Assembly (NCBI GenBank): GCA_031280825.1
Contig: JAITGE010000052.1
Location: 1-49,245 of the forward strand
Reading direction: 5' to 3'
DNA: 49,245 bases
Source of the DNA: Oscillospiraceae bacterium
GTDB lineage: Bacteria; Bacillota; Clostridia; Oscillospirales; Acutalibacteraceae
The notes under the pieces are model-generated. The model ran no database searches, was not told the DNA's origin, and saw nothing but the letters and a program-made list of their open reading frames with translations. The translations under genes were made by a program, and so were the position numbers. Positions within the stretch are counted from its first letter, which is position 1; each line of letters opens with the position of its first letter. Of the stretch, positions 45,711-49,245 are shown in pieces.

Positions 45711-46481
45711 TTATTTTATCGCGATGAAGCCCTTCTTTTTTCGTTGCTTCCAACAGAGGAAGCCGATAACGGCAACAATAACCAGCAGCGCAATCCACTG
45801 TGATGTGGAGAAAATCCAAAAGGCTCCGCGGTTTGCATCACCGCGAAAAAATTCCAGCACGAAGCGCCCTGCGGAATAGAGCAGCAAATATGCAGGAAAG
45901 AGGATGCCGGGACGGGTTCTTTCCCATCTTCCCAGCAAGAAAAGCAGCAGAATTGCCAGATTCAGCGCACTTTCCAGCAACGGGGAGGGGACACGCGGCG
46001 TTGCATAAACTGTGCCCGGAACAGAAAGCATATGCCGAACTTGTATGCCATAACAACAGCCTGCAAACAGGCAGCCAAAACGAGCGACTGCTCCAAAGGC
46101 AGGTGTTGCGTAGGCCATCAAATCGGCGACATGCTTGCGCGGGATTTTTGCCAGCGTTGCATAGAGCACGACCAGCGCTGTCCCTGCTATTAGCCCGCCG
46201 TACAGCACGCCGCCGTTGTTTAAAATACCCCGCCAGTTTTCAAAAGTCCAAAAGCCTGGGTTGCTGCTAAATCGGACGATCTGATAACAGGCGTACATTC
46301 CCCGCGCGCCTACCATGCCGCCGATCACACAAAGCGCCAATATTCGCAACAAATGTTCGCTGGAAATCTTAAAGCTTTTTCGTTTGGTATAAGCAACGCC
46401 GGAACCGACACAAATTGCCGCTATATAGCACAGCCAGTACATGTTAACGGCGTGACCGAAGAGATTGATGGTTGGCAGCAT
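45711..46481 (-). CDS. Prolipoprotein diacylglyceryl transferase family protein
   Basis: A 256-residue protein with about seven membrane segments. Lgt-family blocks are visible: NNGGVLYGGLIAG in the periplasmic-facing loop, FGAVARFGCLFAGCCYGI in place of the classical GNFxNxE signature, VPSPLLESALNL and GRFVLEFFRGD. Lgt transfers diacylglycerol from phosphatidylglycerol to the lipobox Cys of prolipoproteins. The GC-x3-GCCYG form is a divergent subgroup, so an alternative lipid-transfer activity is possible. The start at 46481 (GAGG 5 nt upstream) is preferred over GTG 46487. It begins only 34 nt after partner protein A and may be the last gene of that transcription unit. Confidence 0.82.
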   Translation of the reverse strand: MLPTINLFGHAVNMYWLCYIAAICVGSGVAYTKRKSFKISSEHLLRILALCVIGGMVGARGMYACYQIVRFSSNPGFWTFENWRGILNNGGVLYGGLIAGTALVVLYATLAKIPRKHVADLMAYATPAFGAVARFGCLFAGCCYGIQVRHMLSVPGTVYATPRVPSPLLESALNLAILLLFLLGRWERTRPGILFPAYLLLYSAGRFVLEFFRGDANRGAFWIFSTSQWIALLVIVAVIGFLCWKQRKKKGFIAIK

Positions 46482-46515
46482 ACGCACCTCGTTTGCGGCA
46501 GGATAAAATACACGC

Positions 46516-47208
46516 TTAGGGCATCAGCATTTCTGCAGGCGCGGCATACCGCGTGCGTTCAAAAGGTGTTTCGTTTTTGCAAGCATCAACCAATTTTTGG
46601 TAAATAGATGAATCTTTGATCGTTTTTTCTTCATCCTGCGCGAGTTTTTGTATTTGCGCCGCGCTCTTGTTTTTTGCCTTTTTTTCGGTTAAGCTTGATT
46701 CTGTAATTTTTACATTAAAATTTTTGCCGGGAAGCAAGAGCGTTCCGTTCTTTTGCGCGGAAACAAAGAACACGCAGATATCCCCCTCTTCTGGCAAGAA
46801 ATCTCCTTCGCCCAGAACCAGTGCCTTGTTGCCGATAGAAACCCCGCCTTCTTTCAGAACCGGAACCTTTTCATTGAGCTTCAGATTGCCTTTTAAGTTC
46901 TCAAGAACGGTAATATCGTAGTTGGTGTAAGGGAATCCAACCGTTTCGGTGCCATCTTCGGTTTCGCGCTCAAAAACATTTTCATATATTGTTTTGTTTT
47001 GCAATTCGACTCTGCCGACAAATACATAATCGACGTGCCCTGCAACTGCGCTCGGATCATTGATATCAATAATGTAATCATACAGTATCGGAGCAAGCGG
47101 CAACTTATTTGCAAGCTCAAGATAAAGACCGAAAGCTGTCATTGACACAACAAGGCAGGCGGCGGTGACGATCGCTATCTTTTTCGAACGGGACAATTTG
47201 GTTTTCAT
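46516..47208 (-). CDS. Membrane-anchored partner protein, copy A (unknown; NTR/TIMP-like fold suspected)
   Basis: A 230-residue protein. A basic start and one membrane segment (about 10-32) anchor an external domain. Residues about 55-165 carry VDYVFVGRVE, then YTNYDITVLENLKGNLKL, GDFLPEEGDICVFFVSAQ and a final strand. This strand order recalls bacterial OB-fold/NTR-like domains (the fold of tissue inhibitors of metalloproteinases); that is inference from pattern only, and the domain lacks the Cys bridges of TIMPs. A Lys/Glu-rich helical tail (about 166-230) follows. GGAGAG precedes ATG 47208, which starts 14 nt after protease A. A paralogue (copy B) is at 47920-48636, and the last 70 residues of the two are nearly identical. 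Confidence 0.75.
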   Translation of the reverse strand: MKTKLSRSKKIAIVTAACLVVSMTAFGLYLELANKLPLAPILYDYIIDINDPSAVAGHVDYVFVGRVELQNKTIYENVFERETEDGTETVGFPYTNYDITVLENLKGNLKLNEKVPVLKEGGVSIGNKALVLGEGDFLPEEGDICVFFVSAQKNGTLLLPGKNFNVKITESSLTEKKAKNKSAAQIQKLAQDEEKTIKDSSIYQKLVDACKNETPFERTRYAAPAEMLMP

Positions 47209-47222
47209 AATAGACTCTCTCC

Positions 47223-47798
47223 TTAATATCTCGCATAAGCTGCGTCGTAGGAAGCTTTGTCGTCGGTTGAGAGCGAAATGTTCTCGCGTTTTCCTTGTCG
47301 CATAACGTTCGTAGGCAAGCCGTCATTGTTTTCATCCAGCCCGAGGGCGTGCCCCAATTCATGCGTCACGGTGTGAAGTATGTTGTTGTAATTGAAATTG
47401 TAAGAAGGATCATCCAGATACGCCTTGTTCAAATGAATATAGGCAAAGGCAAGGTTCGTTATGCCAGTCCAACCATTACCTTCGTTATTCACGTCGGAAA
47501 TGCGCACGTCCTGCAGAACCTTTCCGTCATCCGGTCTAAAAACGCCTGGTTTGTATGCGTTCCATGTGGCGACAGCAGTTTTGACATAGCTGTCATATTT
47601 TGATTGGTTGGAATCGTAGTCGCAGTGTTTCCCTGAATCCACAAGATCATGCGGAATGCTCGTTATGATAGAAATGGTTGTTGTGCCGTTTGTGCTGGTA
47701 CCGCAATCCGCGCCCCCGAATGCTGCGGCGACACCCAAAAGTGCGACCGAAAGCAGGGAAGCGCTCAACGCTCGCTTGAGAAAAACTTTCACTTGCAT
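47223..47798 (-). CDS. Secreted metzincin-type (matrixin-like) zinc protease, copy A
   Basis: A 191-residue protein. A signal peptide (FLKRALSASLLSVALLGVAAA, about 6-26) is followed directly by the catalytic domain with no propeptide. AVATWNAYKPGVF and VRISDV are typical early strands of bacterial M10-like peptidases. The active site is HELGHALGLDEN (His146, Glu147, His150). The third metal ligand position, normally His or Asp, is Glu156, with Asp155 beside it. NVM (Met166) is the Met-turn. Cys32 and Cys59 could form a disulfide. ATG 47798 is used rather than GTG 47801. A promoter lies just upstream and partner A follows 14 nt later. Confidence 0.85.
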   Translation of the reverse strand: MQVKVFLKRALSASLLSVALLGVAAAFGGADCGTSTNGTTTISIITSIPHDLVDSGKHCDYDSNQSKYDSYVKTAVATWNAYKPGVFRPDDGKVLQDVRISDVNNEGNGWTGITNLAFAYIHLNKAYLDDPSYNFNYNNILHTVTHELGHALGLDENNDGLPTNVMRQGKRENISLSTDDKASYDAAYARY

Positions 47799-47826
47799 CA
47801 CTTTCTTTCTTGTTTAGGCTATGCAT

Positions 47827-47855
47827 ATTATATCATAAAAAGACAGTTTTTGCAA
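47827..47855 (-). promoter_or_regulatory. Promoter of cassette A
   Basis: On the minus strand TTGCAA (47855-47850) and TATAAT (47832-47827) with 17-bp spacing, 28 nt before the protease A start. Cassette A can therefore be transcribed independently of cassette B. Confidence 0.75.
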
Positions 47856-47919
47856 GCGATTTCGTTATAATCTGCTATGATATATATAGTGGATTATCAT
47901 GTACAAAATAACCAAAATT

Positions 47920-48636
47920 TTAAGGCGTCAGCAACTCTGCAGGCGCGGCATGGCGCGTGCGTTCAAAAGGTATTTCGTTTTTGCAAGCTTCAACCAATTT
48001 TTGGTAAATGGATGAATCTTTGATCGTTTTTTCTTCATCCTGCGCGAGCTTTTGTATTTGCGCCGCGCTCTTGTTTTTTGCCTTTTTTTCAGTTAAGCTT
48101 GATTCTGTAATTTTTGTGTTACAGTTTTTTCCTGCAATCAGCAGACTTCCGTCTTTTTGCGCGGAAACAAAGAACACGCAGATATCCCCCTCTTCCGGAA
48201 GATAATCTCCTTCGTCTAAGACAAGAAATTGACCGTCCATAGTGGCTCCGCTGTCTTTTCTTACTTGGATTGTGTTGTCGGTTTTGAGGTTGCCCTTCAT
48301 GCTACCCAGGATGGTTACGTCGTAGATGGTATAGGGGCTGCCGATCGTTTTTTCGCCGTCCTCGGTTTCGCGTGTAAAGATGTTGTCGTACTGTACTTTG
48401 TGTTGTTTTTCAACTCTGCCGGTGAACACATAATCCACAAGCCCTGCCAGTGCGTTCGCGTCATCGGGGTCAACGACGTAATCGCTGAATTGCGGCGCGA
48501 GCTTCAAAGGGGATTTGTGCTTCAAGATGCCCAAAAACGGACCGAACAAATAAAGCGCAAGCGCTGTGAGCAGAACAAACATGAAGGCGGATGATAGAAC
48601 GATAAGCTTCTTTTTTGTGCTTGTCTTGGCGGTCAT
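47920..48636 (-). CDS. Membrane-anchored partner protein, copy B
   Basis: A paralogue of the protein at 46516-47208, about 238 residues from ATG 48636 (GAGG 8 nt upstream; ATG 48642 is an alternative). It has a basic N-terminus, a membrane segment (about 10-33), then the external domain with VDYVFTGRVE, YTIYDVTILGSMKGNLKT and GDYLPEEGDICVFFVSAQ. The N-terminal two thirds differ clearly from copy A, while from about residue 170 (KITESSLTEKKAKNKSAAQ) the two are nearly identical in DNA as well. It is encoded 18 nt after protease B. Function is unknown; an inhibitor or anchor of the protease is the leading guess. Confidence 0.75.
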   Translation of the reverse strand: MTAKTSTKKKLIVLSSAFMFVLLTALALYLFGPFLGILKHKSPLKLAPQFSDYVVDPDDANALAGLVDYVFTGRVEKQHKVQYDNIFTRETEDGEKTIGSPYTIYDVTILGSMKGNLKTDNTIQVRKDSGATMDGQFLVLDEGDYLPEEGDICVFFVSAQKDGSLLIAGKNCNTKITESSLTEKKAKNKSAAQIQKLAQDEEKTIKDSSIYQKLVEACKNEIPFERTRHAAPAELLTP

Positions 48637-48654
48637 TGTCATCACCTCTTTCTG

Positions 48655-49224
48655 TCAATATCTCGCATAAGCTGCGTCGTAGGAAGCCTTGTCATCAGTT
48701 GAGAGCGAAATGTTCTCAAGTTGCCCTTGCCGCATAACGTTCGTGGGTAAGCCGTCGTTATTTTCATCCAACCCGAGGGCGTGTCCCAGTTCATGCGTTA
48801 TTGTTTTGAGTCTGTTGTTGTAGTTCCATGAGCTTTTGTCTAGATGCGCCTTGTTCAGATGGATCGTACCAAGTTGCAGGTTGGTTGATGCAAACGCATT
48901 GTCGCCCGCTTTATCCACGTCGGAAATGCGCACGTCCTGCAGAACCTTTCCGTCATCCGGTCTAAAAACGCCTGATTTGTATGCGTTCCATGTGGCGACA
49001 GCAGTTTTGACATAGCTGTCATATTTCGATTGGTTGGAATCGTAGTCGCAGTGTTTCCCTGAATCCACAAGATCATGCGGAATGCCCGTTATGATAGAAA
49101 TGGTTGTTGTTCCGTCTGTGCTGGTACCGCAATCCGCGCCCCCGAATGCTGCGGCGACACCCAAAAGTGCGGCCGAAAGCAGGGAAGCGGTCAACGCTCG
49201 CTTGAGAAAAACTTTCACTTGCAT
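48655..49224 (-). CDS. Secreted metzincin-type (matrixin-like) zinc protease, copy B
   Basis: A 189-residue paralogue of protease A with the same signal peptide and active site (HELGHALGLDEN at 144-155, again with Glu at the third ligand position). The first 103 residues and everything from the zinc motif onward are almost identical to copy A. Residues about 104-142 differ strongly (for example GDNAFASTNLQLGTIHLN against NGWTGITNLAFAYIHLN). ATG 49224 is preferred over GTG 49227. Its promoter would lie beyond the right edge. It is complete within the window. Confidence 0.85.
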   Translation of the reverse strand: MQVKVFLKRALTASLLSAALLGVAAAFGGADCGTSTDGTTTISIITGIPHDLVDSGKHCDYDSNQSKYDSYVKTAVATWNAYKSGVFRPDDGKVLQDVRISDVDKAGDNAFASTNLQLGTIHLNKAHLDKSSWNYNNRLKTITHELGHALGLDENNDGLPTNVMRQGQLENISLSTDDKASYDAAYARY

Positions 49225-49245
49225 CACGTTCTTTCTTGTTTAGGC

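What the first reader, a model, noticed from the sequence alone, without database searches (positions are those of the whole stretch)
46516..49245. Tandemly duplicated two-gene cassette: secreted metzincin protease plus membrane-anchored partner
Two head-to-tail copies each encode a small propeptide-less secreted zinc protease and, 14-18 nt downstream, a single-pass membrane protein with a conserved external domain. Fixed gene order, tight coupling and joint duplication indicate that the two products work together. The pairing of a self-exported protease without a prodomain and a tethered partner suggests a protease-control or surface-processing system I cannot match to a described one.
Basis: partly seen in the sequence, partly recalled or inferred. 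Interest (0 to 1): 0.75.

Follow-up and report, generated by a model that had tools for sequence, protein, structure and literature searches.

The report
Tandem protease and TIMP-like partner genes
A bacterium carries two side-by-side copies of a gene pair encoding an exported zinc protease and a membrane-tethered partner predicted to fold like animal protease inhibitors (TIMPs); it is a relative of a pair already described in Listeria, with unusual extras.

Summary
Two head-to-tail units (46516-47801 and 47920-49227, minus strand) each encode a small exported metzincin-like protease and, 14 and about 18 nt downstream, a single-pass membrane protein. It can be matched to a described system: the Mtz-Tim pair of Listeria (PMC8235301, 2021). 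Window proteins resemble Listeria proteins at 41% (protease) and 32-38% (partner) identity. The partner's AlphaFold2 model (pLDDT 82) retrieves TIMP and netrin-like chains from the PDB. In a 391-genome class survey, 18 of 19 intact protease loci examined have a TIMP-like gene alongside; outside the class pairing is less regular (6 of 12 loci), two of these being natural fusions in Levilactobacillus. TIMP-like genes often lack a neighbouring protease (15 of 21 places). Differences from Listeria: transmembrane anchor instead of lipobox; glutamate at the third zinc-ligand position; tandem duplication with a diverged core between near-identical arms. Both such loci in this genome end in an extra lgt (lipoprotein-lipidating enzyme) gene. 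Most likely mechanism: the protease binds and trims its tethered partner at the cell surface, as shown in Listeria. This is inferred here; no activity was tested.

The parts
48655..49227 (-). Protease (Mtz-like) copy 2, 190 aa; signal peptide with Cys33; HELGHALGLDE...NVM zinc site
   Evidence: Pfam M10 24.4 bits (cut-off 24)
47920..48645 (-). Partner (Tim-like) copy 2, 241 aa from GTG 48645; probable ATG start at 48636; N-terminal TM anchor and TIMP-like ectodomain
   Evidence: fold by homology to copy 1, not modelled itself
47223..47801 (-). Protease (Mtz-like) copy 1, 192 aa; signal peptide with Cys33; HELGHALGLDE...NVM zinc site
   Evidence: Pfam M10 26.3 bits
46516..47208 (-). Partner (Tim-like) copy 1, 230 aa: helix 7-33 (TM), conserved juxtamembrane motif 44-57, TIMP/NTR-like domain about 58-165, helical C-tail
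   Evidence: AF2 pLDDT 82.1; Foldseek PDB
45711..46487 (-). lgt paralogue (prolipoprotein diacylglyceryl transferase family), 28 nt after partner 1, same strand
   Evidence: PF01790, 4.4e-36
47827..47855 (-). Promoter-like TTGCAA-17-TATAAT with TG before the -10, upstream of protease copy 1; the same box lies in the C13 tail upstream of copy 2
   Evidence: 3 such sites found against 4.2 in shuffles, so not above chance by number
47490..47801 (-). Near-identical arm of copy 1 (protease codons 1 to about 104; 7 of 312 sites differ from copy 2)
46711..47489 (-). Diverged core of copy 1 (protease codon about 105 to partner codon about 166; 257 of 772 sites differ)
46516..46710 (-). Near-identical arm of copy 1 (partner C-tail; 11 of 196 sites differ)

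Best explanation
Each unit is a homologue of the Listeria Mtz-Tim pair. The protease (Mtz) is exported without a prodomain. The partner (Tim) sits in the membrane by one helix and holds a TIMP-like (OB/NTR) domain outside. Tim is the cognate ligand of Mtz: it holds or restrains the protease at the cell surface and is cut in the conserved segment between membrane and TIMP-like domain, which releases that domain. Shown here by computation: gene anatomy, homology to Listeria proteins, TIMP-like fold prediction, near-constant pairing within the class, natural fusion elsewhere. Shown in Listeria only: Mtz-dependent cleavage of Tim near residue 50 and cell-wall phenotypes. Inferred: that binding and cleavage happen here, and that they restrain as well as release.
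For: Homology: protease to a Listeria phage protein, 41.3% identity over 73%, E 5e-17; partner to L. monocytogenes, 37.7% and 32.4%, E 2e-18 and 2e-15. The Listeria pair at NZ_LR134401 has the same order and a 14-nt gap. The protease profile matches solved matrixins (best MMP-16, E 9.9e-8). Fold: of the 50 PDB matches shown, the first 24 are chains of TIMPs, agrin NtA or complement C3/C4/C5. Pairing in the class: 18 of 19 intact loci. Fusion: a profile built without Levilactobacillus finds the domain in the C-terminal part of both 333-aa proteins, E 3.8e-9 and 1.7e-8. A mycobacterial prophage carries the same gene order, annotated by its depositors as metallopeptidase and metalloproteinase inhibitor. 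Listeria Mtz cuts Tim at about residues 49-55 (PMC8235301 section 4.3); residues 49-55 of the NZ_LR134401 homologue lie in a juxtamembrane motif conserved to the window proteins (that homologue was not shown to be the published gene, so the numbering may differ). The diverged core joins the zinc-site half of the protease to the partner's membrane and TIMP-like part.
Against: No interaction or activity was tested. Foldseek TM-scores by query are low for the 13 best matches (0.27-0.34), since the TM helix and tail were included. The third zinc-ligand position is Glu, not His or Asp, in both window copies, so activity is uncertain. TIMP-like genes lie without a neighbouring protease at 15 of 21 places outside this genome. 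Outside the class, 6 of 12 genome loci and 6 of 7 viral loci with a protease match showed no TIMP-like ORF; one of these 6 genome loci is cut by a contig end, and in some the matched frame is not a clear protease gene. Tim lacks the N-terminal Cys by which animal TIMPs chelate zinc (recalled). The published Listeria Tim is a lipoprotein and phage-linked; the window Tim has a TM helix and no phage gene was recognised among the neighbours looked at.
Confidence: 0.72

Rival explanations
1. Toxin-immunity reading: Mtz is an aggressive surface protease, and Tim is a tethered inhibitor that protects the producer; lone Tims protect cells from others' Mtz. Cleavage is incidental.
For: Asymmetry in the class: Mtz with Tim in 18 of 19 intact loci, while Tim-like genes stand alone at 15 of 21 places. 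The C22 locus kept an intact Tim beside a truncated Mtz. TIMP-like fold. Each tandem unit could be a private pair.
Against: In Listeria, co-expression with active Mtz sensitised cells to lysis rather than protecting them (PMC8235301). Lone TIMP-like domains also occur in a dockerin protein and a histidine kinase, which are not immunity-like. No killing was tested.
Confidence: 0.3
2. The window proteases are no longer active (Glu at the third zinc position); the pair is a surface binding or scaffold module.
For: HELGHALGLDE instead of HExxHxxGxxH/D in both copies; Glu also in G048, G096 and G141.
Against: The glutamate form recurs in four genomes, with the HExxH and Met-turn kept. The diverged protease stretch shows dN below dS (0.27 against 1.07), so it is under constraint. 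Glu can bind zinc in other enzyme families (recalled).
Confidence: 0.15
3. The genes are neighbours by chance or operon inertia, without physical interaction.
For: TIMP-like genes are often found without the protease, and half of the protease loci outside the class lack a TIMP-like ORF.
Against: Pairs seen in Clostridia-type genomes, Listeria, Rhodococcus, a mycobacterial prophage and a deltaproteobacterial MAG, plus natural fusion. Same order in these except in the deltaproteobacterial MAG, where the TIMP-like gene is upstream.
Confidence: 0.04

Closest known systems
Mtz-Tim pair of Listeria monocytogenes (LMRG_00713/00714; PMC8235301)
   Same: Exported metzincin followed closely by a membrane-anchored TIMP-like protein without its own promoter; homologous sequences (32-41% identity to Listeria proteins of this kind); conserved juxtamembrane segment.
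   Different: Listeria as published: Tim lipobox, phage context, cI/cro control, HExxHxxGxxH/D motif. Here: TM anchor, no phage gene recognised nearby, tandem duplication with a diverged core, Glu at the third ligand position, lgt paralogue downstream.
Metallopeptidase / metalloproteinase inhibitor genes 80/79 of Mycobacterium phage prophiGD12-2 (MW584207)
   Same: Same order; genes overlap by 4 nt; partner found by the TIMP-like profile it helped to build.
   Different: Larger protease, lipoprotein-like partner, close to the phage lysis genes (opposite strand).
Animal MMP-TIMP (matrixins M10 and TIMPs)
   Same: Matrixin-type catalytic domain; TIMP/NTR fold of the partner.
   Different: No prodomain, no TIMP cysteine pattern or N-terminal Cys, membrane tether, no detectable sequence similarity to TIMPs.
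Pseudomonas alkaline protease and its inhibitor AprI
   Same: Bacterial metzincin with an endogenous inhibitor (discussed in PMC8235301).
   Different: The inhibitor is not TIMP-like according to that paper; the protease is serralysin-type (recalled).

Membership tests
Mtz-Tim pair (Listeria) | Sequence homology of both proteins to Listeria counterparts | tested here: met
Mtz-Tim pair (Listeria) | Protease gene directly followed by the TIMP-like gene, no separate promoter | tested here: met
   14 nt and about 18 nt; no promoter-like hit in the gaps
Mtz-Tim pair (Listeria) | Extended motif HExxHxxGxxH/D and Met-turn | tested here: not met
   third position is Glu in both window copies, Met present; the intact C22 copy of the same genome has His. 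Hence filed as a variant, not a canonical member
Mtz-Tim pair (Listeria) | TIMP-like fold of the partner | tested here: met
   (predicted model of partner 1)
Mtz-Tim pair (Listeria) | Tim is a lipoprotein (lipobox) | tested here: not met
   helix 7-33, Cys17 of partner 1 followed by hydrophobic residues, none in partner 2. The paper reports relatives in other Firmicutes without a lipobox
Mtz-Tim pair (Listeria) | Association with phage or mobile elements | tested here: inconclusive
   the neighbours looked at are a Clp-type ATPase, a CDP-alcohol transferase, a CvpA-type protein and Lgt (Pfam), and housekeeping-like genes on C22 and C13 (by eye); no systematic phage search was made
Mtz-Tim pair (Listeria) | Mtz cleaves Tim | not testable with these tools
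   needs proteins; motif position only
Metzincins / matrixins (M10) | Profile match over the curated cut-off | tested here: met
   26.3 and 24.4 bits against 24
Metzincins / matrixins (M10) | N-terminal prodomain with cysteine switch | tested here: not met
   192 and 190 aa, no room for an MMP-size prodomain after the signal peptide
TIMP (animal) | NTR/OB fold | tested here: met
TIMP (animal) | N-terminal Cys that chelates zinc, and conserved disulfides (recalled) | tested here: not met
   no such cysteines; no sequence match to TIMP
Toxin-immunity pair | Partner neutralises the harm of the first protein | not testable with these tools
   only lone-partner counts

The most novel reading that the evidence does not exclude
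The tandem is a specificity-cassette array. Constant outer arms (promoter, signal peptide and protease N-half; partner C-tail) frame an old, diverged core that couples the zinc-site half of the protease to the partner's membrane and TIMP-like part, so each unit encodes a private protease-partner couple that recombination moves as one block. In addition the protease is itself a lipoprotein with an unusual Gly at -3 of the lipobox, lipidated by the lgt paralogue of the same operon, so both partners are tethered to the same membrane face.
Probability: 0.15. Interest if true: 0.7.

Novelty: new variant of a known kind. Interest (0 to 1): 0.45.

Why it matters
It extends a little-known bacterial counterpart of the MMP-TIMP theme from Listeria across a whole class of bacteria, and shows a natural protease/TIMP-like fusion. 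The tandem units, with constant arms and a diverged core, give a ready experiment on whether each protease has its own partner. If the lgt link holds, it would also be a case of a lipoprotein-lipidating enzyme devoted to one operon.

Tried and rejected
Pfam and NCBIfam on the partners: no match over a cut-off. PHROGs: nothing for P0001, P0003 and P0004; weak matches to families of unknown function for some relatives. A PDB sequence search with the partner profile found only an E 0.5 match to PARP4, taken as chance; the TIMP link rests on predicted structure. The fusion protein L048 was folded with 8 rows: pLDDT 41, pTM 0.44, unusable. Profile comparison of A4 with the fusion C-terminus alone was not significant; the larger profile was. 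Alignments A5 and A6 put Tim rows partly or wholly onto the protease and were discarded.

A viral-contig scan with partner P0003 found no relative; a scan with the protease profile found 7 loci, of which only L053 has a TIMP-like ORF; its three near relatives L051, L052 and L054 show none of at least 120 aa at that place. Of those 12, L037, L038, L040, L043, L044 and L048 have the TIMP-like domain (L043 and L048 fused); L039 ends shortly after the protease; L041, L042, L045, L046 and L047 show none (the first, second, third and fifth named were rows of the profile used, so their own scores prove nothing). MMP-type cysteine switch at Cys33: rejected, since nothing comparable stands in the mature part of L037.

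A dedicated lgt for the protease is not proven. Three of the closest lgt relatives (G008, G044, G163) sit by a small lipoprotein-like gene with Gly at -3, not by Mtz-Tim. The genus-mate G592 has a Gly(-3) protease with no lgt next to its partner. No lgt relative at E 1e-20 was found in G048, though its contig ends inside what looks like the partner. Two of the seven Gly(-3) cases are neither Mtz nor such small genes: a Tim (L095) and a gene in L140.

Weak points of the pairing count: it uses 28 loci out of 45 places in 33 genomes (the own locus L001 and G020's L075 were also fetched and are not among the 28). Tim-like hits at E < 1e-3 occur in 18 of 28 and at E < 0.01 in 21 of 28. The figure 18 of 19 leaves out 9 loci by my reading: two aminopeptidase-like false hits (L098, L099), one contig end (L097), five broken, partial or fragmentary protease matches (L078, L081, L085, L087, L103; three of them have a Tim), and one doubtful protease (L101). 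Three of the 18 have E 0.0035-0.0081, where signal peptides alone can give weak hits. Some seed rows of the profile had been chosen by eye because they lie beside a protease. For the lone-partner count, class loci show 1.5 kb on each side, one place (G060) lies about 0.5 kb from a contig end, and some matches are weak or fragments.
Full report
What is there. On the minus strand the window reads protease 2, partner 2, protease 1, partner 1, lgt. The two units are direct repeats. Both proteases match Pfam Peptidase_M10 over its cut-off; the partners match no Pfam or NCBIfam model over its cut-off. A profile of the proteases matches solved matrixins, best MMP-16 at E 9.9e-8. A promoter-like box with an extended -10 lies upstream of unit 1 (such boxes are not more frequent in the stretch than in shuffles), and the same box lies in the C13 tail that overlaps the window's right end by exactly 119 bases. 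The same genome has a second locus on C22, with an intact pair, a protease that has lost its first half, an intact partner and then an lgt gene. A partner remnant lies on C1.

What the partner is. The AlphaFold2 model of partner 1 (9 rows, mean pLDDT 82.1, pTM 0.72) has a helix at 7-33, then long strands, then a helical tail. Foldseek against the PDB returns 13 matches at E <= 0.001, all TIMP-2, agrin NtA or complement C3/C5 chains (that the complement chains match through their C345C/NTR domain is partly recalled, partly in entry titles). Identity is 11-15% for those 13 and TM-score by query 0.27-0.34, low because the helix and tail are included. By sequence no TIMP match exists. So it is TIMP-like in predicted fold, not a TIMP by sequence or cysteines.

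The described relative. PMC8235301 (abstract, outline, search passages and sections 4.1, 4.3 and 5 read) describes mtz-tim in Listeria: a secreted metzincin and a TIMP-like lipoprotein, with Tim cut by Mtz near residue 50 and released, and co-expression raising lysis sensitivity. It states that such pairs occur in other Gram-positives. In the searched library it is the only paper found with those names, and the other searches listed no second bacterial TIMP-like system that I recognised from titles and abstracts. A paper on bacterial MMPs (PMC12587646, searched by term only) does not contain the word TIMP in its main text. Window proteins match Listeria sequences directly: partner 37.7% and 32.4% identity, protease 41.3% to a Listeria phage record. 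The annotated NZ_LR134401 pair shows the same order and a 14-nt gap. I did not verify that this is the published gene pair; its partner lacks the published LTAC lipobox by eye.

How general the pairing is. In the family survey (200 genomes, own included) partner relatives occur in 7 and protease relatives in 6. In the class survey (391 genomes, own included), 14 and 33. A partner profile built without the class-survey loci was run on 100 ORFs from 28 protease loci: 20 ORFs in 18 loci score E < 1e-3, and 23 ORFs in 21 loci E < 0.01, all next or next but one to the protease match; none of the other 77 does. Of 19 loci with an intact protease and sequence on both sides, 18 have the partner; L089 is the clear exception. 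Outside the class the picture is mixed. Of 12 genome-contig loci, 6 have the domain: Lachnospiraceae L037 and L038, Rhodococcus L040, deltaproteobacterial MAG L044 and, fused to the protease in one 333-aa protein, Levilactobacillus L043 and L048 (whether the Lachnospiraceae belong to the window's class was not checked). One is cut by a contig end and five show no TIMP-like ORF. Of 7 viral loci one, L053 / MW584207, has it. The converse is weaker still: of 21 partner-like places outside this genome (7, 14), 6 have a protease beside them; some of the others are weak or fragmentary matches. In the genus (14 genomes, own included), protease matches occur in 4 and partner matches in 2; the protease match in G587 is marginal (E 7e-4). 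G592 has the pair across a contig break, with 73 shared bases at the two contig ends and the partner starting 12 nt after the protease. G048 has the protease and what looks like the start of a partner at a contig end.

Mosaic tandem. Comparing the units, protease codons 1-98 have dS 0.03; protease 99-160 dS 1.07; partner 1-60 and 61-155 dS about 2 (near saturation); partner 170-215 dS 0.12. The best three-segment fit puts 7 of 312, 257 of 772 and 11 of 196 differences in left arm, core and right arm; log-likelihood gain 99 against at most 10 in 20 shuffles. The simplest reading is an old duplication whose outer arms were homogenised by gene conversion while the core stayed distinct. That the core couples the zinc-site half of the protease to the partner's membrane and TIMP-like part fits two private couples but does not prove it. 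The two C22 partners show no such conserved tail.

Zinc site. Of 38 sites tallied from loci examined, the residue at the third ligand position is His in 25, Asp in 6, Glu in 5 (both window copies, G048, G096, G141) and Gly in 2, probably one-residue shifts. The window copies therefore miss one letter of the strict metzincin motif, which is why I file this as a variant. Whether Glu supports catalysis is open.

lgt and the lipobox-like Cys. Both loci in this genome end with an lgt paralogue (37% identical to each other); a third lgt-family gene, the best-scoring one, lies on C1. The proteases of the genus carry Cys after Gly-x-x at the end of the signal peptide, then a polar stretch. Among 55 lipobox-like N-termini found by a crude filter, 7 have Gly at -3: three are proteases of this genus, two are small lipoprotein-like genes beside near lgt relatives, and two are neither; a further small gene of that kind, with GVAC, was seen in G044. 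This is a lead with few independent families, and the G592 case speaks against a strict link.

Verdict. A real pair, strongly linked within its class, homologous to a described one, with variant features. The most likely mechanism is inferred from Listeria, not shown here.

Noticed in passing
L030 6394-8454 (G174:C160): A 686-aa ORF joins a histidine kinase (HATPase_c over its Pfam cut-off; HisKA just below its own) to a TM helix and a Tim-like ectodomain, next to a response-regulator-like gene; possibly a TIMP-like sensor, or a run-on frame.
   Followed up: partly
L027 8163-9788 (G162:C214): A 541-aa protein with a signal-like N-terminus and a type I dockerin carries a Tim-like domain at its C-terminus.
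   Followed up: partly
45711-46487, and L135 968-1333, L139 2858-3217, L105 2379-2738: lgt paralogues of the GCCYG type lie by genes whose lipobox-like Cys has Gly at -3: proteases in this genome, small lipoprotein-like genes in G008, G163 and G044.
   Followed up: partly
L023 9768-9998 (C22): 5'-truncated protease remnant with an intact Tim downstream: the partner was kept where the protease was lost.
   Followed up: yes
L025 6666-6905 (C1): 79-aa ORF resembling the partner's N-terminus; probably a degraded Tim remnant.
   Followed up: no
L026 7334-8296 (G056): Protease with an extra N-terminal region that looks like a ricin-type lectin (by eye only), followed by a Tim 16 nt downstream.
   Followed up: no
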